Source: Clytia hemisphaerica (taxonomy: Eukaryota; Cnidaria; Hydrozoa; Leptothecata; Clytiidae). Taken from it: DNA of 64,000 nucleotides. Positions 6,184 through 38,022 of the stretch are shown piece by piece. The stretch's first letter is position 1; every line of letters begins with the position of its first letter. Below the pieces are notes generated by a model. That model made no database searches. It saw only the letters and a program-made list of their open reading frames with translations, and was not told the origin of the DNA. Made by a program: the position numbers and the translations under genes. The stretch lies in NCBI GenBank assembly GCA_902728285.1, contig CACVBU010001294.1, forward strand, positions 1,364,001 to 1,428,000, written 5' to 3'.

Positions 6184-7055
6184 TACCATTATAAGTATAA
6201 GCATTGAAAAATCACACTCTATTTAACGTTTATCGTTTTTAGTGTGTATTATTCTTTGCTACCATATAGAAACCTTGTCAGTATAGTTAGGACTAATTCC
6301 CTCGAGAGTGGGTTACATACCACATGATGGACTGTGAATGATGCACACTTAAAGTAATGGACTTCAATTCTAGCATGAATATCAAGACTGTTAAATTGAA
6401 ATAATTTCATACAAACAAGAATATAACGACCATAATGGGAAAGATCAAAAATCCAATTACGAAAGAATTTACCACTAATCCATATGTCTAAGAGACTTTA
6501 AGCTGCTACAATCATGATCGTAATATTTGAGCAAATAAATTCCATCATTTGCACTATTGATTAGTGCCAATGATTCCATTGACACCGGTGATTCCAAGAA
6601 TCTCCACCATCATATCCATATTCTGTTTCATCATTGTCTTATTCACAAGAACCATCTTCACCAGCATTGCATTAACCAGAACTATCAAATCCATCTTCAG
6701 AATCAATCAGAGTTAATGATATTTCCATTTTGCAACCATCAGGGCCACCGTTTTTAAGTATTTTTTAGTTTTGTTGTTGATTTTTTGTTTTCGTTGTTAA
6801 TTTTTTAGTTTCGTCGTTAAAAAATTAAAGAAGAATCTGAATGGAATTAATGGGCTTCCGTAAATTGATTTGAATTTATTTTGTTTCAGCAACAAAAACA
6901 TCAAACGGAAAATATTTCAAAATAGCGATATTTGATGTGAAGACACGATGAAACATTTTCATGCAATTGAACAAAAATTTTATTTGTTGCAATCGCGAGA
7001 AGATTTGTTTCCGTGTACCCAAAGCTTAAATATATTTTCTGAGAACTTGTATGAC
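6184..7055. other. Intergenic with degenerate minisatellite-like stretch
   Basis: Positions 6560-6730 carry CACCAGAACYATC-like units resembling a worn version of the 30-bp repeats of the neighbouring foldback element (7065-8670), suggesting a related relic. No gene is seen. Confidence 0.4.
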
Positions 7056-7321
7056 CAATCGCGCCGTCGTTACTAAAAGAGGTAACGAGTGGTAGCGAGT
7101 GGTAGCGAGTGGTAACGATGTGGTATCGAGTGGTAACGATGTGGTATCGAGTGGTAACGATGTGGTAACGAGTGGTAACCAGTTGAAAATCGTGACCCTA
7201 AGTCTCCAAATTTGAATTTCTCGATTCTGGTATTTTTGCAACAGATGCTGATGGCTCTTGATGGTTCTGCAGCATGACCTGGCAGATCTGGTGAATGTGC
7301 AGTAGGAATTGGAGATTTAGG

Positions 7322-8068
7322 CGCATGTTATGGTGGAATTGATAGTTCTGGTGAATGTGATGATAAAGTTGGTTGTTTTGGTGAATGAAATGGTGGAATT
7401 AATGGTTCTGATGAATATAATGCTGGTGTTGATGGATCTGGTGAATGCAATGGTAGAGTTGGTGGTTCTAGTGAATGTGATGTTAAAGTTTGTTGTTTTG
7501 GTGAATGTTATAGTGGAGTTAATGATTTTGGTGAATATAATGCTGTTGTTGATGGATCTGGTGAATGCAATGGTGGAGTTGGTAATTCTGGTGAATGCAG
7601 TGGTGGAGTTGGTGGTTCTGGTGAATGTGCAGCAGGAGTTGGTGGTTCTGGCGAATGTTATAGTGGAGTTGGTGGTTCTGGTGAAGGTACAGCAGGACTT
7701 GGCGATTCTGGTGAATGTGCATCAGGAGTTGGTGGTTCTGGTGAATGTGCAGCAGAAGTTGATGGTTCTAGTGAATATGCAGCAGGAGTTGGTGGTTCTG
7801 GTGAATGTGCAGCAGAAGTTGATGGTCCTGGTAAATATAATACTGGTGTTTATAAATCTGGTGAATGCAATTGTGGAGTTGGTGGTTCTGGTGAATATAC
7901 AGTAGGAGTTGGTGATTTTGGTGAATATGCAGCAGGAGTTGGTGGTTCTGATGAATGTACAGCAGGAGTTGATGGTTCTGGTGAATGTGATGGTAAAGTT
8001 GGTTGTTTTGGTGAATGCAATGGTGGATTTGATGGTTTTGGTGAATGTGCATTAGAAGTTGATGCTTC
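7322..8068. repeat. 30-bp minisatellite, left arm of foldback
   Basis: About 25 tandem units of a 30-bp repeat, consensus near GTTGGTGGTTCTGGTGAATG plus ten variable bases, with frequent GCAGCAGGA or GATGGTGGA ends. Because 30 is divisible by three, long open frames appear on both strands (poly ELVVLVNV-like and HQNHQLLLHI-like translations). These are repeat artefacts, not evidence of a protein. Confidence 0.9.
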
Positions 8069-8091
8069 TGGTGAATATGGTGAACATATTC

Positions 8092-8475
8092 ACCAGAATT
8101 GCCACCATCAAATTCACCAGATCCATAAACTCCACTATCATATTCACCAGAACCACCAACTCCTGATGCACATTCACCAGAATCACCAACTACTACTGCA
8201 TATTCACCAGAAGCATCAACTCCTGATGCACATTCACCAGAACCATCAAATCCTGATGCAAATTCACCAGAATCACCAACTACTGCTGCACATTCACCAG
8301 AACCACCAACTCTTGATGCACATTCACCAGAATCACCAACTCCTGGTGCAGAACCTCCAGAACCATCAATTTTTGATTCACATTAACCAAAACCACCAAA
8401 ACCACCAACTCCACATTAATATTCGCATAAATCTCCAATCCCTACTGCACATTCACCAGATCTGCCAGGTCATGC
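8092..8475. repeat. 30-bp minisatellite, right arm (inverted)
   Basis: About 13 units of the same 30-bp repeat in reverse orientation (CATTCACCAGAACCACCAAC plus ten variable bases). The sequence between the arms at 8078-8092 (GTGAATATGGTGAACATATTCAC) is itself nearly palindromic and is the hairpin pivot. Confidence 0.9.
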
Positions 8476-8944
8476 TGCAGAACCTCAAGAGCCATCAGCA
8501 TCTGTTGCGAAAATACCAGAATCGAGAAATTTAAATTTAGAGACTTCGGGTCACCGTTTTCAACTGGTTACAACTCGTTACCTCGTTACCACCTCGTTAC
8601 CACCTCGTTACCACTCGTTACCACCTCGTTACCACATCGTTACCACTCGTTACCTTTTTTAGTAACAACGCAATCGCGCTCTTTTGCACAAAATCAAATA
8701 AAACACTGCATATTTCATTTTTTTTATTTATTTTGGCTTTGAAATGAGAAATTGTTTTGTTCGAGCATCCGCTAAAAAAAATGAAAAAGAAATAGAACTA
8801 ATAGTTACTCAGTTGAAACAAAGAGTCTATGCAATTACAGTTGGGTAAATAAAAAGTAGGTTAATTATTCATACCTTATCACCATATAATAGACCTTATC
8901 GGAGTTTTTTATTTTTCTAAAAAACCGATGTATTGTGGGATTGT

Positions 8945-19625: not shown

Positions 19626-20776
19626 CTCGCGTGGCTGTTTAGGAATGCTTCCGAGGAACCCCGAGTAAAATTTTTATATCTCAAGATCTACGAAAACTAC
19701 TTAACAAATTTACATTATAATTTATGGCGGTGTTTGATTTTTCGCACGGTCCTGAGCCAGAAGGTGTAGCAATATCAAGACGAGCCATACAGTATGGTGT
19801 CTTGGAACTAAAAATAGTAATTTTTGAATGCAACATCTTATGTAGCGATCCATGCTATGATTTCTTCTTTTATATAATGATGGCGAAGTGATTTAGAGTT
19901 GAGAGTTTGAATTTCCCAAATCCTGATGACACGGTTGAAAACACAGCCAATCAAATTTTTTTTTGTCTTTCACTAGTCACACTTTCTTAGAATAAATGCA
20001 CGTTCCGAAAATTGGTTTTAATTTTAGTAAGTGAGGACAGCGCTAAAATAAAATTTTCCACTGTAATTGCTCAGGAGAAAAAGAAAACTGTCTACACCAT
20101 TATTAACTACCTGTAACACCTCTATAAAAGGCTAAAAAACTTTCCCTGGTCGTTTCATAAGTCTAGCAGAAACTCAAATGGTACAGAAGATCCACTTTCA
20201 TTCCCAGCATGTCTTCTTGCATGTATTACTGAACTGAATCGTAAACAAGATACAACATATCAGAAACTAAACTAAACTAAAACATAGTTTATATGGCTTT
20301 GGATACCCAGGCTACCTTGAACACTGCCTTAGAAGAAGCTTTAAATACTAAGATGGAGAATTCTGTCTACAACCACAAAAAGGAGCAAATTCACATTTTG
20401 ATTTTTGATTCACTGATAAACACATAATCTGTTTCTCAGCTTTCGATCTACACAGGATTTCAGCCTCTTACGAAATTATTCTCCTATGATGAAAATAGGG
20501 TTGTGTAGGTAGGTCAAGCAGTGTTAATTAGACACCACATATAAAAGATTGTGAAAAGATGTGTTCAGTGAGAGTATAAAACGCGCGCAATAATATGAAA
20601 TATTATATTTAAATCATGTCAGCACCTTATTTCTGCGGTAGGATAATTATTTCCACTTAAATATATTAATTTTCAGATCATCATGGCTTTGTTGATTTTA
20701 AGAAGTTGAAAATAAAAATAAAAATGTATGTTTACCTGACTTGATCAGCTCTGTTGCTATAAAATAAAATGGAAGC
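19626..20776. other. Intergenic, nothing recognised
   Basis: No frame or repeat of note. Confidence 0.4.
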
Positions 20777-20785
20777 CAATTCAGC

Positions 20786-21993
20786 GGGTCAGTTGAAAAC
20801 CTTAGATAGATAGATATGCCCTCCGTAGCATCGGAATGGGTCCTACCCACGATGGAGTAGGAATCACAGCGCAAGCAGACATTGCAATACTGTATATGCG
20901 AGCTGCAGAGCCATGGTGTATACCATGACACTCGAACTACACGGGAGAACGGATGTCATCGCAGGTGTAGAAGAACCTCTTAAGTGTCTCAGCACACCAC
21001 AATGTCTGGACTACCAATACTCTTGTATCAATGTTGTGGTATCCGATTTCCCTCACATGGCATGGATTGACCCGGGCGAAGGAGCATTCACTTGCCAAGT
21101 GAATTGTAGTGCCACGGTGGGTATTGAGCTCGGGCCTCCTGGACAGAAATCAAGCACGATAACCACTATACCACTACGCCCGTTGGAAACCTAAGCTATC
21201 CAATTTAGCACCCAAATTAAGCTACTTATTTAGGTACCTAAAACAGACCGGAATGGAAAGCTGGAAAAACCGCTGCTACAGCCAGATTTTAAGCTGCTAA
21301 ACCGTTAGAAAAGGAAATAAACAATCAAAGTCAGCGCGAAAAAACAGTTGGATGTTCACGAGCCAGGTTGTTATGACATATTATAATAGAGGTTTAAAAT
21401 TTGAACGAATTGATTTTGAAAAAAAGTCCACACTTTGAGTGCAAAAACACACTTCCAGCCTAACTAACCAAATTCTTTCAATTCGGTGTTTTTAGGGTCT
21501 GAGTTTTTTTCAGGTCACATATATCATTTTCACATCTAAACAGCTTTTTCAAAAATGTCGAAACTTATTTGAAATAAGAAATGCCCTTCCACTAAACACT
21601 TTCAGCCTAATTGCCCCCAATTCTTTGAATTTGGTCATATTTACTCTTAGAGTTTTAAATTTTTACAAGTCACATATATCATAATCCTTTACAGAGTAGC
21701 TAGAGATTAGTGATCCTGGTCCTTTCAATTTCAAAGCTGCAAAGCATCATGGATCCGAGTCAACCCAGGGCGAACAGAGAAAATTCCCTATAGATTTGAG
21801 TTTAAGAGCTCCTTTATCATGTCAAATTTGGTGCCTAGATTGCCTTTTGAAATGTTATGGATTTCTCTAAAATTCCTGTAAGTGAAAATTACAATATTTT
21901 CAGCGTTGATTCGTGTCATTTGTCATTTTTTCAGTACCCAAATGTAGCCAAATTTGAGTGCCAAATTGGTTACCCAACGTTTCCAACTGACCC
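20786..21993. mobile_element. MULE-like MITE (9-bp TSD) interrupted by a SINE
   Basis: GGGTCAGTTG at the left end and CAACTGACCC at the right, with inverted similarity continuing inward (AAACC...CCAATTTAGCACCCAAATT against CCAATTTGGCACTCAAATT). CAATTCAGC is repeated directly outside both ends (20777-20785, 21994-22002), a 9-bp duplication. Two copies of an about 150-bp internal unit (TCTTTSAATTYGGT...AGTCACATATATCAT) lie at about 21440-21540 and 21600-21680. The SINE at 20803-21181 sits within its left terminus. Confidence 0.78.
20803..21181 (-). mobile_element. tRNA-derived SINE
   Basis: Read on the minus strand, the head has a tRNA-like A box (GTAGTGGTATAGTGGTTA) and about 35 bases later a weak B box (GAGCTCAATACCC), the internal RNA polymerase III promoter of tRNA-derived SINEs. 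A roughly 300-bp body follows, and the 3' end is a short (ATCT) microsatellite. Direct repeats flank it: GTTGAAAACCT (20792-20802) and GTTGGAAACCT (21182-21192), 10 of 11 identical, so the insertion is fairly recent. The open frame across it is a by-product. Confidence 0.85.
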
Positions 21994-22002
21994 CAATTCA
22001 GC

Positions 22003-23948
22003 GACGTTTTAAAAGATTTAACAATAAAGGAGTGTCTGACCCACCATATGGACCCACTTTTCCATTTAGATTTAATAGAATGAATAATTCATCCTTATAA
22101 GCTTAGAACATTTCTCCTAAGACCAGCCAATTAAAACCAGTACCGTCCTGAACCGCAGCATTCACTAAAAGACAAAAACGAAAGGAAAGATGAGTCAGAT
22201 TAGGCTCCAATCAAGGAGGTGTCATTCATTGCATACATTTTTAAGGTTTTCGCTTATCAAATCCATGAAGTTGTACAAAACCCTCCAAAGATTCATCTTT
22301 TTCATTTTCACTGGTTTTACGATCAAATTTTATACGTTTTTATTTTAAGAACATCTAAAATTTTGAAGCCTTAACTTTTTGGTTTTAAATGCTAAGAATG
22401 TTCTTATGCTTACCGAGGCGCCCTGTCGTTTGATCTTTTCGTTGGAATTTTACAGTCTGAAAGATAAATGATATAAAGAAATGTGTTAAATGGTCAATTC
22501 TTCTAGCATCTTGGGGGGGGGGACTTATTATGGGCAAATTTTGCAAGTGTGCACCAAATATGAGTTGGCATTTTTAGATGAAATGTTTGGCATCATTGAT
22601 GACATCATCGCCAGCAGCAATCGCCAACACGAACTTGAAAAAACGTCAATCACGTCATCACGAAAACCAATTAGGGGTCCTCTACAACTTGTAAAAAGTA
22701 CATAAAATAAAAAACCATCATCAAGTCTGTTTTTAACAAACCAACCTTCAGAAACAAATTTCAATCGAATCAAGTGAGCCCATTAAGTAAAAATGTGAAT
22801 TTAGGCAAATTTACATTGTGGCCAATGAAGTACCAATCAGAACCGCCTTCTCCCGCTCACCTTAAGATGCTTCCCCTGATAAAAAGTTAGGAAGATGCTC
22901 GATGGTTTCATAAATCGTTAGTCATCCAGAAATTTTGCTCAGTGCCAGGTACTAGATTATACTAGCACTAAAAAAGTAACCCAATTTTGACGTCATCACC
23001 AAGATTGGCAGAAACTAGCAGATTTCCTATCCAAAGGGTTCGTTGTGATTGATATTTTACAAAGTAGAACATAAAAATTTGGCTAAAACCACATATTTGC
23101 CGATTGACTCGCTTGATTCGATTGAAACTTTTGTAGAAGGGGGGGGGGGTCAGAAATCTTCCTGAAAAAAGGAGCATAAAGCAAGTAGGCTGACCTTGTG
23201 AAAAAAGATAAACAAATAGAAATGAAAACACAGGTTCATTTCTAAACAAAATGGCCGCTGAAAAGGAGCCTTTTTAAAATGTGGCTGATGTTTTGATGTA
23301 GTTTAAAGTAGTTTTGAAAGTTTTTTGAGTTTGTAAAAGAGGTTTTATTGTAAGTTAATTATGTCTGTCTGCCTGGGTTTTGATAGTCTTTCAACAAGGG
23401 TTCACTCACAGGCAGTACCAAACAAACTGTACCCGACTTTTTTAGTTACATCAGAGGTAAGAAATTTTGAGTCTGGATACCCAGGCTAGAATTTTATTGG
23501 AAAGTTGAATGTAGTTGAAGACATTTTCGCGAGGGGGTCCGCTGCTAAGGCCTGGTAAAATATTTTATTGGCCAAAGACTGATTACAGGCAAAAAGGTAC
23601 ACGAGAGCATTCAATCGAGTGAACCTGTGCCTGTGTAGGCCCGGTTGGTAGGAGACTATTCAATAAAATTTCAAGCGTCTAACCAATGAAAAGTACCGCG
23701 GTGATTTTGAAAATTTTTTTCCTGTCATCACTTTGATCCATGTCAACGGGGTCACACATTTGCTGTTTTGCACGCTCGTTTTCAACACTTTACTTTTCTC
23801 TGGGCATTCACGCCCAACGGGCTTCTTGTTAATTATTAATCACATCACACTATCTGTTTTCTGAAATTTAGGCCAAAAATCTTTGGGTATAAGCATTTTT
23901 AATGGGATTTTTTTAAGATTTTCAAGAAAGCAAGAAGAGGATCAGTCC
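22003..23948. other. Intergenic, nothing recognised
   Basis: Two poly-G tracts (about 22512 and 23140) and short frames only. The frame at 22490-22705 has no splice or family support. Confidence 0.4.
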
Positions 23949-24215
23949 CCGGGGGGCATACTTAGTAAAAATGGTTGCTGGGTATGTGTGAGTCATAAGG
24001 GCCCCATTTCGACACCCTCGAAAGTCCCTCAAAGGGGTACAAAAACCAATAAAAAGTGAATTCAGTCTCTGTAAGGGGTACAAAATTAAAAAGAAAATCA
24101 AAAATCGAGCCCTCAAAGGGTCATAAATTCTAGGAAATTGAACTAAAATTTGAGCCGAAATTTCTAGTAAATAGTCTCTCTAAGGGTGGCAAAAACGTCA
24201 AAAAATGAACAATCC
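23949..24215. mobile_element. G/C-tract MITE family, truncated copy
   Basis: CCCGGGGGGCATACTTAGTA start and internal AGTCTCTSTAAGGGTGGCAAA units identify the family. The C-rich right terminus is missing. Confidence 0.55.
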
Positions 24216-24279
24216 ACTTTTCTATGTAAAATAACAAAAACTAATAAACCTCTTCAAACGTGGCATTTAATGGTTTGAA

Positions 24280-24310
24280 CAGAGATTTGGAAAAAGAGGA
24301 TAAGAAATGC
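24280..24310 (+). repeat. Left terminal inverted repeat of P-type transposon
   Basis: 31 bp, an exact complement of 36542-36572. Preceded by direct repeat GTTTGAA at 24273-24279. Confidence 0.9.
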
Positions 24311-25093
24311 CGCTGCCGCTCGCTGTTTTCCTATTCTTTCCCTTTGAATTCGGCACCCTTTGAAGAAGCAAGGCTGTAGAATAGTTGAGCAAGAAGGAAG
24401 GCAGAAACAAAATGGCGTTACGTACAGGTCTACTAAAGCTCAGTGGAAAATGTCTGATAAAGAGGGTTTCCTGTGCTTTTGTTTAGAGAAAGAGAGAAAA
24501 AAACTCAAATTCAACCCTTCAGGGGTTTCCTCTGAGAAAATCTCGTGAGCAGCTGTTTTATTTCATCAACAAATATGGTAGAAAGAACATATGGTGAAAA
24601 AGAGATAAAAATGGATGTAATTTGCTTTTGGCTTGTATAGTCCAAAATGAATTTTTTGTATGGCAAACATAATTTTTATGGGTAGTAGGAAGGTTGATAG
24701 TGATCATGTAAGTATTAGTTTACCCCGGCACTCTCTAAAACGTCTTGGCATTTCCTCTGAAAATGTTTAAGAAACGACTGAAAATAAGTGTTTTTCTCAC
24801 TTTTTAGAATAGAAAAAAAAGAAAATATCGGTTGGAAAAGTATAGTTGATGTGTGTAGTTGAATGGAGTAAGTATGTAGGACAAATTTTACTTTCTGGCA
24901 CAATGATAGGTTTCCCTGCTTATCAAATTTTGGAATTTCCTTAAGATTTTGAATTTGACAGTTGAACAACTTTGAAAGTTATTTGGATTAGTAGCAATCA
25001 CGACAGTCATCAATTGTATCTTAAAACTACTGCACAAGCTTTTTTATTAATAACGTAATCAATTGATTTGTCTTTTTCATCATTAACATAATA

Positions 25094-25325
25094 TACCGTG
25101 AAGTTGGGTATATAACTATTGCACATCAGTGGAGGCTAACATGCATAGCCCTCAAATGAATGACCTGGCTGGTCCTTAGTTAAATCAAAACAAAAATGGT
25201 AGAGTAGAGCTTGCGAGCGGAGCTGCGTAGTTCATTTGTTTTGAAATTTTGCTGCTTTGATTGGTCATTCATTTGAGGGCTAGCATGTTAGCCTCCACTG
25301 ATGCAAGTTACCCAATCTCACGGTA
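25094..25325. mobile_element. Foldback MITE inside transposon intron 1
   Basis: About 70-bp arms: TACCGTGAAGTTGGGTA...CATCAGTGGAGGCTAACATG...CCCTCAAATGAATGACC on the left, with its complement at 25262-25325. The loop is about 95 bp. It lies within the first intron of the transposase gene, so it inserted after or with the transposon. Non-coding. Confidence 0.8.
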
Positions 25326-25454
25326 AACGACTGGACCCATCTCTTTATATTTTTGTAGAAAGCATGCTTGATTGCCACCATAAATCTTTTTTAGGCATCA
25401 TTGTGAAAAGCTAAAGTTGCATTGCCGGACCTGTGGCAACAAGTTTGTCAAAGT

Positions 25455-28400
25455 CAAACTAACGACTTAAACCAAGGACTTAAACCACAAACAGTTCAAT
25501 CAACAGTACCATATATCAAAGACAAGTTGATTGAGAACTTTTTATTTATGATTTTAACAGAAACTTGGCTCAAAGACCATAATGATGCTGAGTTACACAT
25601 AGAAGGCTATGAAATATTTCGGTCCGACAGAAAAAGACCAAAGTCACGATTTGGAAGATGTAGTGGTGGTGTCGCTATATACATGAGAGAAGATATTTCA
25701 TCACACTTCAAACAGACCGTTACACACTCAAATGGCGTTATCGAAGTCATCTGTCTGAGTTCGACTACATTGGATATCCAAATATGGGGAATATACCGAC
25801 AGCCAGACGACTCATCAAACGGAAATCCATCTAAGAATGAACAATTCAAACCAGTTATAGAGTTAATTAAATCAGAACTAGACAAAACTGAAGGAAAAAC
25901 ACCAGACATCTTCATAGCAGGTGATTTTAACCTGCCACACGCAAATTGGGACAGCAAGTGCTCAAACCCTGGGGCATCTACAGAGGAACAAAGAATGACT
26001 AGTGAAATATTCACTCTTATGAATGACCATAATCTGATTCAACACATTAGAGGAGCCACACACAAAGCAGGAAATACACTGGATTTAATGCTCACAAATA
26101 ACCCTCTACTAATACACAGCTATGAATCAGCCCCATCACCAGATTACATATCCCATCACTCAATGATCAATGTTAAAATTCACTTTGATTTACACTCAAG
26201 TTTCCAAAAGGAGGATCCCTTTGTTGTGCGTAATGTATTTGATGAGTACAGTTTTCATTCAAAAACAATAAACTGGGTATCAATCAAGGAAAAAATGAAG
26301 GATAAATTGTGGACAGACCTTCATGATCAACCGACAGCTGACCAATTGTCAACAATCACAGACTGGACCATAGACATAATTAAGGAATATGTACCAAAAC
26401 GAAAACCAAACACTAAAAAATTTCAGAAGATACCACGCGAGCGAAAGATTTTATTCAGAAAAAGAAAAAAACATTTTTAGAAAATTTCCAAACCCAATGA
26501 AAAATGCAAAATCCAAACAAAAATTAATAGACATTGAAACTAAACTAAAGCTATCCTACGAATCAGAGAAGAAAAGCCAGGAAAGGAAGGCAACAGAATC
26601 AATAAAAAACAATCCTAAATTTTTTTATGCATATGCAAAAAAGCATAGTAAATCAAAATCCAAAGTTGGACCACTGCGTGACAAGAATAATTCTTTGATA
26701 TATGATGCTGACCGTATTGCTAATATACTCCAAGACCAATACACATCGGTTTTCAGTGTACCATCGGAAAATGACGTCACTCATCCAACAATATGTCCAA
26801 ACGTGCTAAAAGACATAGAATTTGACGAAAAAGATTTCATTGAAGCAATCTCAACATTGTCACCAAACTCTGCTCCAGGTCCTGATGGATTTCCTGCGAT
26901 TTTGCTGAAAAATTGCAAAGAAGAACTTGCTAAGCCACTCGCAATATTCTGGAGGAACTGTCTGAACCATGGAGTAACAGAGGAGATTCACAAAAGAAAT
27001 CATATCACACCAATATCAAAGGGTAGGAGATCAAGGAGAGCCATCTAACTACAGGCCAGTATCACTTACGTCCCATCTCACCAAGGTGTTTGAAAAAATA
27101 GTTCGAAAGAAGATAGTCGAATTTATCAACAACAATGACTTGTTCAACCCAACACAGCATGGTTTCCGGGAAGGGCGATCATGCCTTAGTCAATTACTCA
27201 GCCACTATGACAGTATCCTATCAAAACTAGAAGAAGGATTGGATGTAGATGTTATATATCTCGATTTTTCAAAAGCATTTGATAAAGTCGACCACAGGAT
27301 ACTGCTATCAAAACTGAAATCTATTGGAATAACAGACAAACTACTTAAATGGATTAAGTCATTTCTTCAAGACAGAAACCAAGTAGTATTTGTAGACGGT
27401 CACAAGTCGTACCAGGCAAAAATTCAATCAGGAGTACCTCAAGGATCGGTTCTTGGGCCATTATTCTTCATCATCATGATATCAGACATTGATGAAGGGA
27501 CAACCAAAGCAGAACTTGCAAGTTTTGCTGATGACACACGAGTAAAGAAAGGAATCCAAAACATCATTGACCAGTTTCACCTACAAAACGACCTTAACAA
27601 TGTTTATCAATGGTCGACCATAAACAAAATGATGTTAAATGGAAAAAAGTTCGAGCATCTCCATTATGGAAACGGACCAGCCACCAGTTATTTCACAGGT
27701 GAAGGAAAGATAATCCAAACCAAATCTTCAACAAAGGATCTTGGTGTTACCATGTCAGACGATGCGAAATTCAACCAACATATTCTAACCATTGTAGAAA
27801 AAGTACAGATACTCATTGGTTGGATTCTGAGAACATTCAGCTCAAGAGAACATGATGTCATGCTCACTCTTTGGAAGTCTTTAGTCATACCACAAATCGA
27901 CAACTGTTCTCAACTATGGTCACCCAATGAAGTTAATCTGATCCAGCAGATCGAAGATCTCCAAAAATCATTCACAAGGAGGATTATAAACCTACACAAC
28001 CAAAACTATTGGGAAAGACTACAAACATTAAAACTGTTTTCACTGCAGAGAAGGCGTGAAAGATATATTATCATATACACTTGGTGTATTATTGAGAAGC
28101 TTGTCCCAAATCCTGGGACAATCACGTTCTATGCCAATCCCAGACAAGAAAGAAAATGTCACATACCACTAGTGAAAAGGGGGCCCTGGCAAAAAGTCAT
28201 ATACTCAAGTTTTAAAGTCCAAGGACCAAGGCTTTTCAACTCGCTGCCAAAACATCTGAGGGATCTCACTGGGTGCAAGAAATTGAAATTCAAAACTGAG
28301 CTGGATAAATATCTTTTTACAGTTCCCGACGAGCCACTCGTGACTGGCTACACTATGATGAGACGAGCTGAAACAAACAGCATCATCAATATGAAAATTT

Positions 28401-28470
28401 ACATCGGTCCTCACAGGATGGATGCGTAAAGATATTACGAAACAAGCTCAAGGTAACTCAAGGTAAGGTA
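25455..28470 (+). mobile_element. CR1/L2-like LINE (5'-truncated) inserted in transposase exon 2
   Basis: The body encodes an endonuclease and a reverse transcriptase (see the 25500-28429 entry). The left edge is placed where the transposase reading breaks off after CGNKFVKVK, the right edge just before it resumes at TPVH (28471). The 3' end carries short repeats CTCAAGGTAA/GGTAAGGTAA instead of poly-A, as in CR1/L2-clade elements, whose 3' ends are short tandem repeats. There is no ORF1 and the endonuclease starts abruptly, so the copy is 5'-truncated. No clear target duplication was found. Boundaries are uncertain by about 20 bp. Confidence 0.75.
25500..28429 (+). pseudogene. LINE ORF2: apurinic-like endonuclease plus reverse transcriptase, two frameshifts
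   Basis: Three consecutive frames make one protein of about 975 residues. Frame 1 (to about 26478) is the EEP endonuclease: ILTETWLKD, FGRCSGGVAIYMRED, GIYRQP, IAGDFNLPHANWD, GNTLDLMLTN. Its terminal SDH motif reads ISHHSM, so the catalytic Asp is replaced. Frame 2 (about 26475-27020) carries the start of the reverse transcriptase (NSAPGPDGFPAILLK). Frame 3 (about 27030-28429) has NYRPVSLTSHLTKVFEKIV, QHGFREGRSCLSQL, VIYLDFSKAFDKVDH (motif A Asp), GVPQGSVLGPLFF and FADD (motif C). The frameshifts lie in an A-run at about 26460-26475 and near 27022. The order and motifs match CR1/L2/Jockey-group non-LTR retrotransposons. The copy cannot retrotranspose. Confidence 0.88.
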
Positions 28471-29153
28471 ACACCAGTTCATACATATGCCGCCGAAATT
28501 AAGATAATTTTCAAACATGATGTCACAGAGGATGATGGAAATATTTTCCCCAAAGTTTTGTGTGATGGATGTTGTAGGCAATTCTTCAGAGTGAAAGAAA
28601 ACCCATTAAATTATGAAACACAAGATGTCCTTCCAGTGTTTGGGGAGTGTTTTCCAGGTTGCAGCATTTGTAAACGTGGTCGCCCAAAAAATAAAGATCG
28701 TTTCAAACTTAACAAGCTCAACATTGAATCGTCAACATCAACGCCAGATTCCATTTTAGAAGCCATTGAGTGGCATGAACATTTTCTTTTATTACCAACA
28801 CATGCACCATACAAATTTGTTTTTGGAATTTTGGATGCCAGCTACTCATCTTCAGATTCGCTGCCAACAATGAACTTTAGGATTGGCATTTGTGATGAAG
28901 ACTGGGATATCTTCTTCCATGATACTAAGATTCGAAGAAAAGATTCCTTCTTGAAGGATCTCCCTGACAAATTAGATAAGGGTGAGTAGCATTCTTGTAC
29001 GATTTAAAGAATCTTGCACCATTTTTCAGGTTCCAAATGTAACACATGATAAGATAAATAAGTTGGTTTTTCTGACAATCCTTATCCCAGTGTTTCTTGA
29101 ATTTATGTGAGACTATTGAACATATTGTCCTAAAGTCTAGCTTGAATTTAGAA

Positions 29154-29490
29154 CCTCTGGGGGGGGTGTTATTAGGCCAAAATGGATGCAGGGCATGTGC
29201 GGATATAAAGGGTCATTTTGTTCACCCTGCAAAGTCTCTAAGGGTCGCAAAAGTCAGAAAAATCTGAATCAGTCTCTCTAAGGGTCGGAAAATTCATAAT
29301 GTTTAGGAATTTTTTTGGAAAAGGCGCTCTGAAGGTAGCGAGTTATTTAAAAATCAAAGAAAATTTTTCAAAAAAGTCTCTCTAAGGGTCACCCTTTCAG
29401 CAAAAATCAGTCTCTCTAGTGATTGGTTTTTGGGGGTCCCATCCGCACATACCCCTCGTCTGCCAACCTTAGTACCCCCCCCCTCCCCGG
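29154..29490. mobile_element. G/C-tract MITE family, copy in transposase intron, 8-bp duplication
   Basis: Lies in the intron between 28981 and 29542. GGGGGGGTGTTATTAGG start and CTTAGTACCCC...CCCCGG end; sub-terminal GGCATGTGCGGAT against ATCCGCACATACC. ATTTAGAA flanks both sides (29146-29153, 29491-29498), an 8-bp duplication. It inserted after the host transposon. Confidence 0.8.
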
Positions 29491-32400
29491 ATTTAGAATC
29501 ATTTTATTTACACATATGATTGTTGACTTCTTTATTTATAGAAAATATCTCAGTTGTTTTTAACCATTTAAACATGATGACACTTTGCCCTGGCAACCCA
29601 GATTTTCAAGATTTGATCAAGCGTAAGTTTGACTCCCAGGAGACTTGTTTTAAAGACCAAGCTGGAAAAGAAATAAAGGCTATCATTCAACACCCCAATA
29701 TAATCAACCAGGGTAACATGTCCACAATAAGAGCTGTTGATTGTGATACAAACATACAAACACAGAAGAAAACTTGTCCTGGTTGCTCCAAATACCGTCA
29801 AACATTGAATAAAATCCGTGCAACAAACAATGCTCGTGACTCAAAACAGATTGGCAATGTCCCAAATGATTCAACAAACAATCGTTATATGAACAAAACG
29901 CAGTTAACAACCAAATGCGAGGAACAAGCAAGGACAATCAAGTCACTCAAACAAACTGTCAATAGGAAGAACGCATTCATTTTGGAGATGATCAATGATG
30001 AAGGTTGTGTTGTCCAAGATGAACAACTGTCAGGTATGATTTTTAATTTATAGGATGATTAAATTTTCTCTATTGTAAAATGCCTTTGAGTGAAGTTTTA
30101 GCTTTTTAGATAATTCTGGATTCTTCATTTCAGCAGTTAAATGAGATCCATTGCCTAACTGTCAAAAGACTTCTATAGTTATACGCCACTTTTTAAAGTT
30201 AGCTTGTTAGGTGCCCTTTTACCATTAGCCATTACTGAGGCATGCCTAGAGTCTTGTAACATAGCCTTGGTAATGGACGGGACTATTTATACTGCAGTTT
30301 CACATGGAAACTAGTTCGTTTGGTAATTAGCTAGGTGAGCAAGTATAGTGCAAAAACCTAGGGGCTACTCTAGGACAGTTATTGAAACTTGAATAAATCA
30401 TTTTCAGTAAGCCCAGCTTCGTTGTAATTTCTTTGGTTATCACGATATATGCTGATGAGATAATGATTATTTCTATTTCTATTTCTATTTTTCCATTTAT
30501 TTTCATTAGCCTAAAAAAGCTAACATTGCAAATATTAACAAAAACTTGTTTATAAAAAGGAAAGAAGAATATTATACAATAAAAAACAGTAATAAATAGT
30601 AAGACATAGTAAAAATAGAAAAAAAATAATAAAAATATATATTAAAATATATTGAATAAATAGTTTATTAGTTAAAGAATTAAAAAAAGGCGTATTTTCT
30701 AAAAAGTTGGTGGTCATCAAAATACCAAAAACTTAACAAAAGAAAAATTTAAGAGAAATATTACAGATAGTCATAACCAAACATGTATTGTATGCTTTCC
30801 TTTTAGATCTTTGTACCAAATTAATTAACGATGTAGCATGCCCCTTTCCTGATGATAGTGCACAATCACTTCTCTGGCACCAACAGAAACAGTATGCTAC
30901 TGCAAAGAACAAAAGAACAATGCGCTGGCACCCTGTCATGATTAGGTGGTGTATATCTATTTATTTGAAATCACCAGGGGCTTATGAACACCTTTGTGAC
31001 TCTGGGTTTTTGTTTTTACCAACTAGACGAACCCTCAATAATTATCTGAGTTTTACAGAGGCAAAAGTAGGATTCAATGCTGATGTATTTAAGCATCTTC
31101 TGACTTTGACAGAAAAGCAAAAATCCACACATGTAGGCCTTGCCCACGACGAGATGAAAATCAAGAGTGGTCTCGTATATAACAAACACACTGGTAGAAT
31201 CATTGGTTTTACAGACCTTGGTGGGAGTTGAGGGCCTTCGAGAAAAATGTTCAGGAGGAAACAAAATTCAGACAAACGGCAACGCATGTTTTCACTTTGA
31301 TGGTACGTGGTATTGATTTCAGGCTGAATTACCCAATAGCATACTTTGCTGGTGCTGGTATATGAAGGCCTATGAGATCTACCACATTGTTTGGGAGGCC
31401 ATTCGAATGCTCGAGTTCTTGGAATTCAAAGTTTGGTTTGTAACGTGTGATGGGGCGGCACCAAACAAGAAATTCTTCATGATGCATGCCAATTTGAAAA
31501 ATGTGGTCGATGGTATCGTGTACTGGACAATTAACAAGTATGCGGACGATGGGAGACGAATCTACTTCATTTGTGATGTGCCTCATCTCCTGAAAACAAC
31601 TAGGAACAACTTTTCCAATTCGCATGCTCACCAGAACACAAGAGAATTGTTTGTAAGAACTTTATACTATTTATTGCGGTTTATTAATGCATCTTTTAAA
31701 TCTGAATGGACAGAAAAGGAAACTTACCTTTCGAAATGTAGTGTTTGGTGTTCTTTTCTTTCAGCTACTTGGTAAAGAGGTCAGCTGGCAACATATAATA
31801 TCTCTTTTTGAGAAGGACCTTGGTTTAAACCGTATTGCACCTGGTTTCCGACAAACGAAACTCACAGTTGAGCATATCAGACTGACACCTCGAGCGAGGA
31901 TGAAAGTCTCACTAGCAGCACAGGTAATTTAACAATAGGAACATTTTTCCAAGTGATGTAAATTAATACTTCTGTGGAATGATCTTTTTCAACTAAAAAA
32001 GGAGAAAATCTATGTAGATAGCGGGAATAAAAAGATGTTAGTAGACTCGTCACACATGACATGGTGTCTTTTACTTTCCAGGTTTTGAGTAATTCAGTAA
32101 ACGTTGCACTGGAAATGCAGAATAATGATGCAACCCTCTCAACACGGAAATTCATTTCAATTTTCAACAAATTTTTTGACATTCTCAACGTTAAAAGTAC
32201 CATGATTGGATTTCGGGAACTGAATGAAGATAAAAAACCTTTCGAAGGTAAAACAGGAGATAGCAGACTTAAGGTAACCATTCCTTGTTTGTGAAATCGC
32301 TTTTATTTAGATCACTGTGTCAAAGCATGGGAATAAGCGGTTGGTAGAAAATTAATTTTTCTTCATCTTATTTGTATTGCCTTTTCAGTGGTTACAGGAT

Positions 32401-33046
32401 ATTTTCTTACCCTTCCTCACTAACTGGGAAAAGGAAATTCAAAACCTCGACTTGGACGATGAGAAGAAAAAGAAAAGGATGTATATTTCTCAACAGACAT
32501 CCACAGGGCTGAAAATAACAGGTAATAATACTAATAAGTTATGAACTCCCCTTATCTATACTCTCCTCCGTTATGTTTTGAAAAAAAGGGTAGATAGGGA
32601 AAATTTTTATGTCCATAGATAAGAGTGGTCAAATACGTCAATCAAACTAGAATGAGGAAAGAATCCTTTGTAATATTTAATATGCCGTTAACTGTGTAGA
32701 TAATAAATTAAATTTCGCTAAGATAAGGGAGTTACATTTTTTGTATCTAGCTCATTCGATGATGGAGATGATTCCAAAACTTTTTGCCGCTGCCTGGAAT
32801 AAAGTACATTTTAACAGATCGATTCAACCAAGATCCATTAGAGGAACATTTTGCTAAACAAAGATGTTAGGTAGTTGTGATAACCCGACACTTTACCAAT
32901 ATGGAGAAACCGAGAAGAAAACACAGGTCGGTAAAGACCCATTTTTCAGAAATAAAAGAGGTAACTCTTCTGGACGCAAAGATATCAAAACTGTTGATAC
33001 TACAGATTTGACACCCCTTCCAAAGAAAAGAAAATTAGAAAAGTGA

Positions 33047-34590
33047 CTAAATTTTATATGATGTTGGGTTGGAATTACTTTACTTGGATATTTTATATAC
33101 GTTGTTTGTTGTTAGTTCCCCGGTGACACTAGTATTCAAAAAATATTGTACTTAAAGGTTTTTGTTTTGCAAATGACTAATGGTGCGGGGCCAGTTTACA
33201 GTGTACCCTGAAAATATTGAAACTGGTAGTACGAGTGTTACCTTAAAGTCCATAAATTTATTTCTCTTACACAGTTTTTTTAGTTGGTTTTGAGGATTTT
33301 ATTTTATGAAAATAAATACACGATTTTTTATTATATGAATAGTGTACTTTGGATGAGGGCCAAGTTTTTTAAGAAAGTGCTAAAATTGAGGGTGAAATAT
33401 TCTTAACGTATTCGTACTTTTTTAGACTTGACTTTTTTACGAACATGAAAAATAATTTTTGGACTTTTGAGTGAACATTTGGGTTAAAATTACATATTTT
33501 CCTCAAAGCTTCAATTCATCTCTAACAAAGGAAGCAGTTTTTTTTTGTTAACCAAATACAAAATGACTGTATTCTTATCAGATTCTGTGAAATTCACCCT
33601 AGAGGGTATTCTTACGATTTGGCCAACTTTCATCCTGGTATTCTTATAGAATATATTCTTATAAAAAAAGCGTGTAATACTGTTTAATTTCTCACGTCAA
33701 GCTGTATTTCTGTATTTTGTAGCTGTTGTAATTTTCAAAATTTTACTAGGGTTTTAATTTATTTATTTTTTAATATTCATCACATCTTAAGCTTTTAAAC
33801 AAATTATATATAATTTGTTTTTGAATTTCCTAAGATTAGGGTACAAAAAGTTTTTGCTACTATAATAGGTAAAAACTAGAACAATTAGCTCAAATGTTTT
33901 TGATGTGTGGTAAAGATATTCTTTATTTGAAGTTAACCAACCTTACCAATAGGGTAAACAATAACAAGTATTTGAGATAAATTGAAAACAAAAAAAATCC
34001 CAAATTTTATTAAAACAGAAAATTAACATAAAGGAAAACAAAAACTAAATAAAAATATATCTGAAAGTAATTTGCAGTTCAATAAATTGACAATCTTCCA
34101 TTCTTGATTTTTTTCAACGAGCACAAAGCCCCCAGTCAAATTCGATTCTTATATATAAAGCTATTTCTTGTTTGTTGGAATGTAGTTTATTTTGAAACTC
34201 AAGAAAACACAAGACAAGAGAACAACAAAAAAATAAAAAGTCATCTAGGAAAAAGTATGAACAAGGTTGAATAGTTTTCGAAAATCCAAAAATTCAGTGG
34301 ATGATTATCAGAAACATTTCCTAGTTGAAATTTGGCAACACAAAACTAAAAAAAAAACGTGATCCAACAGATCCACAAGGCAAAATGTAATGAAACACAA
34401 AACAAAAATCATATATAACTAAATAAATAAATATAATGGAATGGATGCATTAGTTTAAATAAATAACATATTAATCTATCAAAATAACTGACTGTAAAAA
34501 AATGAATTAAACTTCTTCGAAGCAATAAATATAATCGAAATAGATATGAACGTTAGTATAATGGTATGAAAAATACATATTTAGCCAGAT
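33047..34590. other. Non-coding gap between the two convergent transposon genes
   Basis: Very AT-rich, holding the 3' flanks of both genes. AAAATAAATAC near 33308 could be the plus-strand polyadenylation signal. 34390-34560 has several ATAAATAAATA tracts. No third gene is seen. Confidence 0.5.
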
Positions 34591-36342
34591 TTAGCTTGGC
34601 AGGCTTTTACGTAGAGCAAGTGCTCCCATGTTATCAACTTGTTCTTTTGATTTATATTTTACAATATTCAACCAAGCTTTAATAAAGGCATGGCAACGAA
34701 TGTCTATCCAAATTTTGAAGACTGACTCTTCCAACTGATTTGATAATTTAATGTCTAGATTTTTAGTCAACGATTCCCATCCCAATCTTACAAGTGAACT
34801 GCATCGAAATTTTTCCAACAAAATTGGCCGGAGATCTTCACCTGCATATTTGTTCAAAAATGACATGTTTAGAATTTTCCTGGTAACATATTCGAGTCTT
34901 CTTATGAAAATATAAAATTCATCATTTACAACATACAGCCCACCCCTGTTGATCTTTTTTGTCCACTCCTTGGTGTACTCTAAAAAATCTAAAACTTTTC
35001 CTCCTTGATCGCTGTTCCAGCTATGTAAGATCATAAACAAGTTATCTTTAGAGGTAGATTCTTTCCTGTCCTTCAACTTTTCCAACAAAGACCGAGGAAT
35101 GTAACCTGCCACATACATCAATACATTTTCCTCTTCAGAGGAAAGTCTCAGTTCCTCATCTGTCACTTCTTTTTCCTCCGGAACTTGCAAATCATTCCGA
35201 AAAGTCAATATTTCCTTATAAAAACTACCAGAAACATTACCAAATAACACTTTTACATTTTTCATATGCTCATTGACATCAAGATTTTCATTGGCTAGAA
35301 ATAACAGCAGCCACTCATACCAAAGTTCACCGTCCCACAACAATCTTTCATACCTCATTGTTGAGGTTTCCATTTGATAAGGTGTTGCTGGAACACGTTT
35401 ACTGATAACATTGAACAATAAACTGAAAAAATCACATAATCCAGTATCATTCCCATCATGTAAATCAATCAGAAAACTGGTCATGTTGTGAATGGAAGAC
35501 TGTGGTCTCAGCCCAAAAATTGGGTCGTCTCTTGCTTTGGTTAAGGAGCACTTTGAAAAGTTTCTTTGCTGCTTTTTCGTACCATTCATGTTGCTCTTTT
35601 TTGTCAATTTTCACTGGTGCATCAGCAGGGTTACCTGAAGTTGAAAAATTTGATTATAATTTACAATGATTTCAATTTTTTACTTGTTTTCATATATATG
35701 AATTCCACCTTCCACATTTCCTCTTTTATTTGTTTCTCTTTTTTCCACTTTCCCTTTGCCTATGCTATATACAGTATATAGATGTCTTAGTGTAATGTAA
35801 GTTTTCTTTGTTTTGCCCTTAGTTCTTAGTTAGAAGTTCATGTTCTTATCTAAGTTATATAAGTATTCTGTTGATATATTCTTTAGCTTGAACACTGTTT
35901 CGGATGTTGTTTTACTGTAACAGTATGTAATGGCTTGTATGCTAATATAGCAAAGTAATATATATTTTTTCTAATTTAAATTCACTGTTCTCAACTTACC
36001 ACATTTCACAATGTGTTTATCCAGCCATATCCGCCTAAGATAGGGTTTTCCACATAACCTGCAAATAAGCTTTGGTATTTCCAAGTCCTCTGGACTTGCT
36101 TCTCCATTGTCAACTACGACGATTGGGACTTGATTTTCATTAATAAATTTAATCTTCATCTCTGCATTTTCAACACCGAATTCTAAATAATTTGACATTT
36201 CAATGTCATTCTCCTCTAGAACGATCTTGCCTCTTTGAAATTCTGTTTGCAGCTCCTTTTCATCGTCGTCACTAAAGGTGAGCTCTTCAAAGTCAATATT
36301 CTCTATAATATTTTCCTCCTTTTCAGCAAAGTAGGCCGCCAT
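34591..36342 (-). CDS. Second (convergent) gene of the P-type transposon, function unknown
   Basis: Minus strand, two exons: 36342-36000 and 35634-34591, joined in phase across CTTCAG acceptor and GTAAGT donor. ATG at 36342 sits in AAAGATGGCGGCC, a good start context. Exon 1 encodes a very acidic N-terminus (FEELTFSDDDEKELQ) and a C2H2-like finger, ICRLCGKPYLRRIWLDKHIV then KC. Exon 2 begins KIDKKEQHEWYEKAAKKLFK and continues to RDDPIFGLRPQSSIHN, MYVAGYIPRSLLEKLK, NRGGLYVVNDEFYIFIRRLE and a Lys-rich C-terminus. A one-base frameshift is needed near 35560, so this copy is probably broken. The YxAGYI...GGL arrangement loosely recalls the C-terminal region of P-type transposases, but I cannot assign a domain. 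Its place inside the 31-bp TIRs argues for an accessory transposition protein. Confidence 0.6.
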
Positions 36343-36541
36343 CTTTGTTTACATTTTTAAAAAAATTTTCGCTTTCGCTTTCGATATCAACCACGGCTAC
36401 CATTTTGGTGTGTACTTGTAGTCTTGTGCGTATAACCAAATCAAGCGCTCTGATTGGTTCAGAATGAAAACAATCGATCGGCCGCAGACATTTCAATAGA
36501 GACAAAAGATTCTACAGCCTAGCTTCAAATAGATGAATAGC

Positions 36542-36572
36542 GCATTTCTTATCCTCTTTTTCCAAATCTCTG
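36542..36572 (-). repeat. Right terminal inverted repeat of P-type transposon
   Basis: 31 bp, an exact complement of 24280-24310. Followed by GTTTGAAC at 36573-36580. The host sequence on this side (TGGCATTTGATGGTTTGG) resembles that left of the element (TGGCATTTAATGGTTTGAA), so the target probably held a 21-bp tandem repeat. Confidence 0.9.
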
Positions 36573-36580
36573 GTTTGAAC

Positions 36581-38022
36581 ATGGCATTTGATGGTTTGGA
36601 GTCATGCGCCGGGTCCATTTTTATTTATCTTATTTTATTGTTCTAAAAAAGAAATAAAAGAAGGAAAATAAAATGGAAAAGTAAATATCATAACATTTAT
36701 AAAAGAATAAGAAACTTGCGACCTTACTTAACCCTTAGACCCCGAGGGACGCCTATATGCGACCAAAACAAACCAAAATACCGAGTCTCAAACTTGAGGC
36801 CATAGCTCCTGACCACTTGATTTAAAGGGGCATAAACCTAATGCTTTTAAAAAGAATATGAAAATAGCTTTCCAATGGTACCAAAATCATGTTCTAAATC
36901 AAGGGCTACAAGGTTTTATGGCACTTTAAAGTTTTGAGTTACAAAAAAAACTTTCAACTTTTTCAAAAAAAACAGCGCGCACAAAAGGTAAACCGTTAAC
37001 TTTATGTAAAATTTGCAAAAGTGAACTCCTTGAAAAAGTCTGAGCGAGATTTCCTTAAAGCAGTTCAACGGGACTCTTGGGTCGTTTAAGCTTTTCAGGG
37101 CATGATATATATTATACTGATCCAAAAAAAAACCCAAAAAATGTAATGAAAAAGTATAAAACTAGTATGCAACTGACTCCTGTGCTTTTTTCCTTGCAAC
37201 CCTTCTGACTGCCATGGTGGAAACAACAAAGTTGTCTTCGAAGCCATTTGTTCCAACTTTCTAGATTTTTTCTTCCTAAAATCAACTTGATTTGCCTGAA
37301 AAATATCTAATTCGAACATTATCAATTTTGTAGAGAAAAGCGGCGTGGGAGATAGGTTAGGTTGGCTTTAGCACTAGAATTTTTTTTCCGTATAGAAAGG
37401 GCTTTGTGGAAGATAATTGGATGCTAATATTTCAGGAAGTTTGTTTTTATATATTGTAGGATAAGTGACTTACTTTGAGCAACAACCCGGGAGTCCCTTT
37501 AACCCTTAATGTCCGATAAATCGGTCATGGGCTATATTAAGGGCGAAGCCCTCCCGTAATGCCCAGTTTGAGTCAGAAATCGTAATTTTTTTCGATTATT
37601 TCTAAGCGAAAAAGTAAAAAAAATGCAAAAATTTAACAAATCTCTTTTTTTGAGATTTTGACCGTTTTTCCTAATTTTTAGCTTCTAGCTTTCTAGTAGC
37701 CCGGGGCCTACTTATAGCTGTTTGATAGACTGGATAGGTGCTGATAAGTAGCCAATGCAGTGTAATTTGTCAGACTCCATTTTTCGGCTTTGTTTGCTTG
37801 AAGTGTTAGCAAATTCATACCACTAGATCCAGACCCTTTTTGAAGAAAATCGAAAAGCAAACCATGATCAATTGACCATTTTTTTCAAATTTAGGAGATT
37901 TTTTTATGTTTTTCTATTATTCCGGGTGTTTCAAAAAAAAGTGTTGAAGTCATGTTGTCAGAAGACTAATACAGTAATGTTATAATTCCAGACAGAACCA
38001 TCAGACAGAACCATCAGACAGA
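36581..38022. other. Intergenic; possible TTAA-bounded repeat
   Basis: TTAAAGGGGCATAA at 36832 and CCCTTTAA at 37495-37502 face each other and could bound a roughly 660-bp TTAA element, but only about 8 bp match. A 13-bp tandem repeat (CAGACAGAACCAT) occupies 37990-38022. No gene. Confidence 0.4.

What the first reader, a model, noticed from the sequence alone, without database searches (positions are those of the whole stretch)
24450..33046. RAG1 N-terminal-like zinc region fused to a P-element-type transposase
Seen: the first coding part, split between 25395-25455 and 28468-28981, has CRTCGNKF, PVH, a hydrophobic-HDV segment, IFP, CDGC and CSICKRGRPK in that order. From memory, vertebrate RAG1 shows the same order (CRICG.SF, PVH, FRIDV, IHP, FCHNC, CDIC..RRG). 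The same gene continues with P-element/THAP9 catalytic motifs (HDEM...KSGLVYNKHTG, CDGA, DVPHLLKTTRN, DPLEEHF). Known: RAG1's catalytic core derives from Transib, and a RAG1-N-like transposon protein (N-RAG-TP) was reported in Aplysia. Inference: the RAG1 N-terminal module circulated on P-superfamily transposons, independent of the Transib core, replacing the THAP DNA-binding domain.
Basis: partly seen in the sequence, partly recalled or inferred. Interest (0 to 1): 0.92.

Follow-up and report, generated by a model that had tools for sequence, protein, structure and literature searches.

The report
P-type transposon carrying RAG1-like zinc module
A decayed 12-kb jumping gene in an unidentified eukaryote's DNA appears to join a cutting enzyme of the fruit-fly P-element type to a zinc-binding module resembling the front end of RAG1, the protein that reshuffles vertebrate antibody genes, which would mean that this module also travelled on an unrelated kind of transposon.

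Summary
The gene is part of a larger thing that was missed: a whole transposon, 24280-36572, with perfect 31-bp terminal inverted repeats, a 7-9 bp flanking direct repeat, a 12-bp subterminal inverted repeat and a second, minus-strand gene of unknown kind. The catalytic exons match the P-element RNase H profile; one aspartate aligns with catalytic D230 of Drosophila P transposase. No THAP domain was found. The zinc exon splices in phase, through two GT/AG introns, into the catalytic exon, so one gene is likely (no transcript seen). The RAG1 link is supported but not conclusive: the RAG1 profile match stays below its curated cut-off (best 18.8 bits, cut-off 23.3), but lies in the right register, and the piece across a nested LINE separately matches RAG1's first CxxC motif. 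A generic ZAD-type zinc fold is the main rival. No relative was found in the viral and prokaryote collections open to me, so spread, direction of transfer and kinship with Aplysia N-RAG-TP stay open. Verdict: probably a P-superfamily-type transposon with a RAG1-N-like module in place of THAP.

The parts
24272..24280 (.). left flanking direct repeat GGTTTGAAC (target-site duplication; last base overlaps the TIR)
   Evidence: same 9 bases at 36572-36580. Reads as 7 bp with a 31-bp TIR, 9 bp with a 30-bp TIR, 8 bp if one end base is unpaired
24280..24310 (+). left terminal inverted repeat, 31 bp, begins CAGAGATTTGG
   Evidence: 100% complementary to 36542-36572; no other copy in the window at up to 8 of 31 mismatches
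24371..24382 (+). left copy of 12-bp subterminal inverted repeat AGGCTGTAGAAT
   Evidence: exact match at 36509-36520 on the other strand; 11 of 2000 Markov shuffles reach 12
24450..24544 (+). probable first coding exon (MSDKEGFLCFC...), donor GTGAGC
   Evidence: phase fits the acceptor at 25395; no Pfam match
25395..25455 (+). left half of the zinc exon: HHCEKLKLHCRTCGNKFVKV (RAG1 C1-like); right edge approximate
   Evidence: with exon 1, aligns to CRICGNSF of RAG1, 15 of 2000 shuffles reach the score; no PF12560 match alone
25456..28467 (+). nested LINE interrupting the zinc exon (edges approximate), endonuclease and reverse transcriptase frames
   Evidence: PF14529 2.1e-14, PF03372 1.4e-9, PF00078 4.8e-31
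28468..28981 (+). right half of the zinc exon: PVH, FKHDV, IFP, CDGC, CSICKRGRPK (RAG1 C2/C3-like), then about 90 residues of unknown kind
   Evidence: PF12560 0.0048, 0.0015, 0.0013, all below cut-off; SW 52 vs RAG1, 1 of 2000 shuffles; 28741-28986 no Pfam match
29542..30033 (+). linker exon ending in a stretch where P transposase has its coiled coil (by eye only)
   Evidence: both splice phases fit; only weak Pfam matches, taken as noise
30807..31231 (+). helix-turn-helix-like part and start of RNase H core with HDEM
   Evidence: PF21787 2.8e-10; phmmer to P transposase 6p5a E=0.01, D of HDEM aligned with residue 230 of the chain
31198..31650 (+). rest of the RNase H N part with CDGA and DVPHLLKTTRN, in two further frames (frame breaks)
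   Evidence: PF21787 positions 60-92 (0.0016) and 97-133 (0.00062); 6p5a E=0.0072
31759..31923 (+). GTP-binding insertion domain, first half (end by the donor seen)
   Evidence: piece 31759-31929: PF21788 positions 21-66, E=0.00067
32082..32273 (+). GTP-binding insertion domain, second half (end by the donor seen)
   Evidence: piece 32082-32291: PF21788 positions 66-111, E=0.00033
32389..33046 (+). C-terminal exons with ILTDRFNQDPLEEHFAKQR, frame breaks, and a basic tail PKKRKLEK
   Evidence: read; no P-type Pfam match of the short pieces, no PDB match of 32772-32867
34591..35634 (-). second gene, large exon (VLMYVAGYIPRSLLEKLK...NRGGLYVV), one frame break
   Evidence: no Pfam, only a noise-level PDB match, no relative in IMG/VR
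36000..36342 (-). second gene, first exon, ATG at 36342, ends in a C2H2-like finger CRLCGKPYLRRIWLDKHIVKC (by eye)
   Evidence: donor and acceptor phases fit; no C2H2 profile match, only a weak S-Me-THD_C match
36509..36520 (-). right copy of the subterminal inverted repeat AGGCTGTAGAAT
36542..36572 (-). right terminal inverted repeat, 31 bp
36572..36580 (.). right flanking direct repeat GGTTTGAAC

Best explanation
24280-36572 is a decayed, near full-length DNA transposon of the P superfamily type. Its transposase gene (plus strand) joins a RAG1-N-like zinc module (C1 CRTC, C2 CDGC, C3 CSIC) to a P-type catalytic core, in place of a THAP domain. Shown here: the ends, the core, a gene model with in-phase introns, the RAG1-like register. 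Inferred: the zinc module would bind the subterminal or terminal repeats, as THAP does for P and as the RAG1 central non-core domain binds double-stranded DNA; the core would then pair the ends with GTP, cut them with its D-D-E site and insert with a 7-8 bp duplication. The convergent minus-strand gene (C2H2-like finger plus a large body) would be an accessory DNA-binding or transpososome factor; this last is a guess. A LINE later inserted into the zinc exon, and the copy lost its frames.
For: P core: PF21787 2.8e-10 with continuation pieces, PF21788 in two adjoining halves; 6p5a alignments, D230 matched. Ends: perfect 31-bp TIR, 9-base direct repeat and 12-bp subterminal repeat; Drosophila P has 31-bp TIRs, 11-bp internal inverted repeats and 8-bp duplications (PMC7776569, passages), Galileo 7- or 8-bp duplications (PMC4168063, passages). 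One gene: zinc exon right half, linker and catalytic exon give 476 residues without a stop across two GT/AG introns. RAG1 register: hit on profile 146-220, where the RAG1 comparison stretch LIAKVFRIDV..RRGLKRK lies at 145-215; 0 of 20 shuffles match; Smith-Waterman 52, 1 of 2000 shuffles, first of 648 window ORFs; the left half with exon 1 separately, 15 of 2000.
Against: PF12560 never reaches its cut-off (13.6-18.8 of 23.3 bits); in the 476-residue join it falls to E=0.049; two pieces cut at the front, 28516-28740 and 28573-28740, lose it; an unrelated piece gave noise at E=0.0075. A LINE ORF scores 51 against RAG1 by Smith-Waterman, nearly as much as the zinc exon, although it has no Pfam match. 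With Cys/His held fixed 17 of 5000 shuffles of the right half and 14 of 5000 of the left half with exon 1 reach the score. Left half alone: no PF12560. The E of DPLEEHF could not be aligned. No second copy, no cDNA. The flanks share sequence beyond the direct repeat, so part of it may be older than the insertion.
Confidence: 0.7

Rival explanations
1. The module is a generic ZAD-type (two CxxC pairs) zinc fold that RAG1, insect zinc-finger proteins and this transposase share by fold or convergence; nothing ties it to RAG1 in particular.
For: The RAG1 comparison segment itself matches zf-AD PF07776 at E=0.0022. Most of the PF12560 signal comes from the FKHDV..IFP..CDGC stretch (28498-28647 alone gives 15.2 bits), which is also the ZAD-like part; adding up to CSICKRG brings only 1.0 bit more (16.2).
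Against: No window piece matched zf-AD, though the LINE splits the domain so the test is weak. The match runs on through the third CxxC to profile 219-220 and with the residues behind it gains 3.4 bits (18.6 against 15.2); C2-C3 spacing is 33 here and 35 in RAG1.
Confidence: 0.2
2. Two elements: a RAG1-N-like transposon or gene (such as N-RAG-TP) lies next to, or was invaded by, a P-type element, and the apparent fusion is juxtaposition.
For: No cDNA; the copy is broken; the join rests on predicted introns.
Against: Both lie inside one perfect TIR pair; two successive introns keep phase and the 476-residue join has no stop; the zinc part stands where THAP stands in P transposase.
Confidence: 0.07
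3. A domesticated host gene rather than a transposon.
For: Multi-exon structure.
Against: TIRs, direct repeat, frame breaks and LINE insert.
Confidence: 0.02

Closest known systems
Drosophila P element / zebrafish Pdre2 (P superfamily)
   Same: RNase H core with GTP-binding insertion, D230 position, subterminal inverted repeat, 7-8 bp duplication; TIR beginning CA as in Pdre2 (for Drosophila P recalled); a coiled-coil-like linker before the core (by eye).
   Different: No THAP domain found; RAG1-N-like zinc module instead; a second convergent gene; about 9 kb without the LINE.
[quoted passage not shown] Chapa domain)
   Same: Order and register of C1, C2 and C3 motifs; match to PF12560 positions 146-220.
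   Different: Below the curated cut-off; no RING match; attached to a P-type, not Transib-type, core.
Chapaev, Chapaev3 and TransibSU transposons
   Same: Carry the Chapa domain with a DDE transposase (PMC4411706, section 6).
   Different: [quoted passage not shown] I had no Chapaev sequence to compare.
N-RAG-TP of Aplysia
   Same: A mobile element with RAG1-N-like sequence (PMC8355894, passages).
   Different: Described there as composed entirely of RAG1 N-terminal-like sequence; the original paper could not be read, so its core is unknown to me.
ProtoRAG / RAGL transposons
   Same: Two convergent genes (abstract in the listing) between TIRs, RAG1-N motifs (PMC7204232, passages).
   Different: 5-bp duplications, RAG1 core and RAG2-like kelch partner; no Pfam match to these in the pieces scanned here.

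Membership tests
P superfamily transposon | P-type RNase H core | tested here: met
   PF21787 41.1 bits, cut-off 24.6; continuation pieces 19.2 and 20.5 bits, below cut-off singly because the frame breaks
P superfamily transposon | GTP-binding insertion domain | tested here: inconclusive
   two adjoining pieces cover profile 21-66 and 66-111 at 20.5 and 21.5 bits, cut-off 24.8
P superfamily transposon | catalytic D-D-E | tested here: inconclusive
   first D aligned with residue 230 of the chain; CDGA falls in a match to PF21787 102-133; E of DPLEEHF seen only by eye (no match)
P superfamily transposon | TIRs and 7-8 bp target duplication | tested here: met
   31-bp perfect TIR; 7-9 bp direct repeat, exact length ambiguous
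THAP9 / canonical P transposase | N-terminal THAP domain | tested here: not met
   no THAP match in the pieces; six-frame C2CH scan of the element gave one hit, antisense to the linker exon
RAG1 N-terminal region (PF12560) | profile score above curated cut-off | tested here: not met
   13.6-18.8 bits against 23.3; the whole module was not scanned, as the LINE splits it
RAG1 N-terminal region | C1, C2, C3 motifs in order and register | tested here: met
   RAG1 segment typed from recall, confirmed as RAG1 by 233 bits to PF12560
RAG1 N-terminal region | RING/ZDD after the zinc module | tested here: not met
   no RING match in the exon pieces; also absent from echinoderm RAG1L (PMC7204232, passages)
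N-RAG-TP | sequence similarity to the Aplysia element | not testable with these tools
   sequence and paper not held
ZAD (zf-AD) | PF07776 match | tested here: inconclusive
   no match of any piece, but the LINE splits the domain

The most novel reading that the evidence does not exclude
P-superfamily transposons are an independent carrier of the RAG1 N-terminal zinc module, and elements such as N-RAG-TP are (parts of) them; the module that RAG1 carries moved between unrelated DDE transposases, and a two-gene convergent layout arose on this lineage as on the RAG transposon.
Probability: 0.35. Interest if true: 0.85.

Novelty: new variant of a known kind. Interest (0 to 1): 0.66.

Why it matters
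The origin of RAG1's N-terminal region is an open part of the story of V(D)J recombination. Print treats it as already fused in an ancestor of the Transib/Chapaev lineage (PMC4411706, section 6) or as acquired from N-RAG-TP (PMC8355894, passages). A P-type transposon carrying the same module would make module exchange between unrelated transposases testable, and would mean that proteins matching RAG1-N alone are not evidence of a RAG-like recombinase. It would also suggest that THAP, the DNA-binding part of P transposase, is replaceable.

Tried and rejected
Relatives: seven of eight viral-contig scans, with the zinc exon, two catalytic pieces and the second gene, the TIR and two degenerate motifs, and both genome-contig scans: no confirmed relative. 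One search gave one locus, L001, a 909-residue frame holding DVPHFLKTASN and no other likeness that I could see, rejected. These collections are of viruses and prokaryotes, so their silence says little about animals.

Structure: AlphaFold2 on single sequences gave mean pLDDT 35.3 (zinc exon right half) and 38.3 (second gene); both unusable, so no fold search was run. PDB sequence search of the zinc exon: no RAG1 match, only two noise-level rows.

Second gene: my recollection that VLMYVAGYI...RGGLY resembles the C-terminal part of some P-type transposases found no support and is not claimed. Weak Pfam hits taken as noise: Paramyx_P_V_C, DUF7838, zf-DNA_Pol, S-Me-THD_C, NRBF2, FUT8_N_cat and others. 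tRNA and Rfam scans of the window: nothing.

Literature searches (10 of 10): in the titles and abstract starts listed I saw no RAG1-N or Chapa module on a P-type transposase. The library holds open-licence papers only, so this is no proof that none is in print. Not held: Panchin and Moroz 2008, and a 2005 Transib paper, which I know only from recall.
Full report
What was checked. The window is eukaryotic by content (introns, LINE, P-type transposase; inference); no genome is held for it and the species is unknown to me.

The element. An inverted-repeat search of 20000-38000 listed the 25 longest of 251 pairs; one is a perfect 31-nt pair far apart, 24280-24310 and 36542-36572. No other copy of this 31-mer, at up to 8 mismatches, is in the window. 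The bases GGTTTGAAC stand on both sides (24272-24280 and 36572-36580). Because the end bases of the TIR overlap this repeat, the duplication can be read as 7 bp (TIR 31), 9 bp (TIR 30) or 8 bp (one end base unpaired). The flanks also share TGGCATTTRATGGTTTG beyond the repeat, so the target may itself have been a short tandem repeat, and part of the direct repeat could be older than the insertion. Inside the ends lies a 12-bp inverted repeat, AGGCTGTAGAAT, 60 bp in from the left TIR and 21 bp in from the right one; 11 of 2000 first-order Markov shuffles reached 12. Drosophila P has 31-bp TIRs, 11-bp internal inverted repeats, transposase binding sites at a different spacing on the two ends, and 8-bp duplications (PMC7776569, passages); zebrafish Pdre2 has 13-bp TIRs, 12-bp subterminal repeats and 8-bp duplications (PMC10983969, passages); Galileo has 7- or 8-bp duplications (PMC4168063, passages). 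The element is 12,293 bp, about 3 kb of which is a nested LINE.

The transposase core. 30809-31228 matches TNP-like_RNaseH_N at 41.1 bits (cut-off 24.6); the next pieces, in two other frames, continue the same profile at 60-92 and 97-133; 31759-31929 and 32082-32291 cover the GTP-binding profile at 21-66 and 66-111, each below its cut-off. Against solved structures the match of note is Drosophila P transposase 6p5a, E=0.01 and 0.0072; a 55-residue piece around CDGA matched nothing. The alignment sets the D of HDEM on residue 230 of the chain, one of the three catalytic acids (D230, D303, E531; PMC7776569, passages). DPLEEHF was seen but its 32-residue piece matched nothing.

One gene. A probable first exon 24450-24544 fits in phase to the acceptor at 25395; the zinc exon ends at 28981, the linker exon is 29542-30033 and the catalytic exon starts at 30807, all with GT/AG borders; from the right half of the zinc exon through HDEM the join reads 476 residues with no stop. 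This is a gene model, not a transcript.

The RAG1 question. PF12560 (RAG1 importin binding) was matched by all 7 scanned pieces that hold 28504-28683 whole: E=0.0048, 0.0015 and 0.0081, 0.003, 0.0013 and 0.003 and 0.049 for the 476-residue join. Two pieces cut after the second CxxC still match (0.016, 0.014); two pieces lacking the front part do not (28516-28740; 28573-28740). No match reached the cut-off of 23.3 bits. None of 10 full shuffles and none of 10 shuffles with Cys and His fixed of the 81-residue piece matched PF12560. Smith-Waterman against that segment: zinc exon right half 52 (1 of 2000 shuffles as high), left half with exon 1 40 (15 of 2000; CRTCGNKF on CRICGNSF), and as negative controls the linker exon (736 of 2000), catalytic exon (93 of 2000) and second gene (1803 of 2000). 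With Cys/His fixed, 17 of 5000 for the right half, 14 of 5000 for the left half with exon 1, 2 of 5000 for the left half without it. Among 648 stop-to-stop ORFs of 40 aa or more in the window the zinc-exon ORF ranks first at 52, but a LINE ORF is second at 51 and an ORF at 6879-7025 third at 46; neither has a PF12560 match. So the two halves, separated by the LINE, point to the same region of RAG1 in the right order, each at modest strength.

Caution. The RAG1 comparison segment itself matches zf-AD (PF07776) at E=0.0022, so part of the likeness may be a shared two-CxxC zinc fold. Going on from the second CxxC as far as CSICKRG adds 1.0 bit (16.2 against 15.2), and with the residues behind it 3.4 bits (18.6), which favours RAG1 only slightly. 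I therefore call the module RAG1-N-like and do not file it in PF12560.

What it most likely does. The RAG1 central non-core domain (residues 87-217) binds two zinc ions and prefers double-stranded DNA (PMC3124419, passages). P transposase first engages one end through its THAP domain, then pairs the ends with GTP (PMC7776569, passages). By position and kind, the zinc module here would do THAP's work. This is inference. The second gene starts 230 bp in from the right end on the minus strand, has a C2H2-like finger (by eye) and a large body with no Pfam match and only a noise-level PDB match; an accessory role is a guess. The convergent two-gene layout recalls RAGL transposons (PMC7204232, abstract start, passages), but nothing here shows kinship of the second gene with RAG2.

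Against print. PMC4411706 (section 6 read; [quoted passage not shown] PMC8355894 (passages) describes Aplysia N-RAG-TP as composed entirely of RAG1-N-like sequence. The original N-RAG-TP paper could not be read. Seven held papers cite it; of these I looked at passages of five (PMC8355894, PMC2996935, PMC8289069, PMC5440852, PMC5874043), and those passages do not say what catalytic core it has. In the listings of my ten literature searches I saw no P-type carrier, in an open-licence library only.

Verdict. By my judgement the fusion is likely (about 0.9 given the TIRs and phases), RAG1 homology probable (about 0.75), and the evolutionary story untested.

Noticed in passing
34591-36342, minus strand: Second gene inside the same TIRs: C2H2-like finger exon (by eye) plus a 339-residue frame with no Pfam match, a noise-level PDB match and no IMG/VR relative; one frame break.
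   Followed up: partly
7081-8654: Large foldback-like array: 21-bp GGTAACGAGT-type repeats at 7081-7183 and their reverse complement at 8580-8654 enclose 30-bp repeats at 7325-8076 and, inverted, at 8112-8399.
   Followed up: no
25124-25303: Perfect 21-bp and 20-bp inverted arms close together in the predicted first intron, perhaps a small palindromic element.
   Followed up: no
51247-51432: Tandem array of a 40-bp unit, 4.6 copies.
   Followed up: no
63520-64000: A 205-base stretch (63520-63724) repeated at 98% identity at 63799-64000, the end of the window.
   Followed up: no
RAG1 comparison segment, not in the window: The RAG1 central non-core stretch typed from recall matches the zf-AD (ZAD) family PF07776 at E=0.0022, below its cut-off, a possible clue to its fold.
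   Followed up: no
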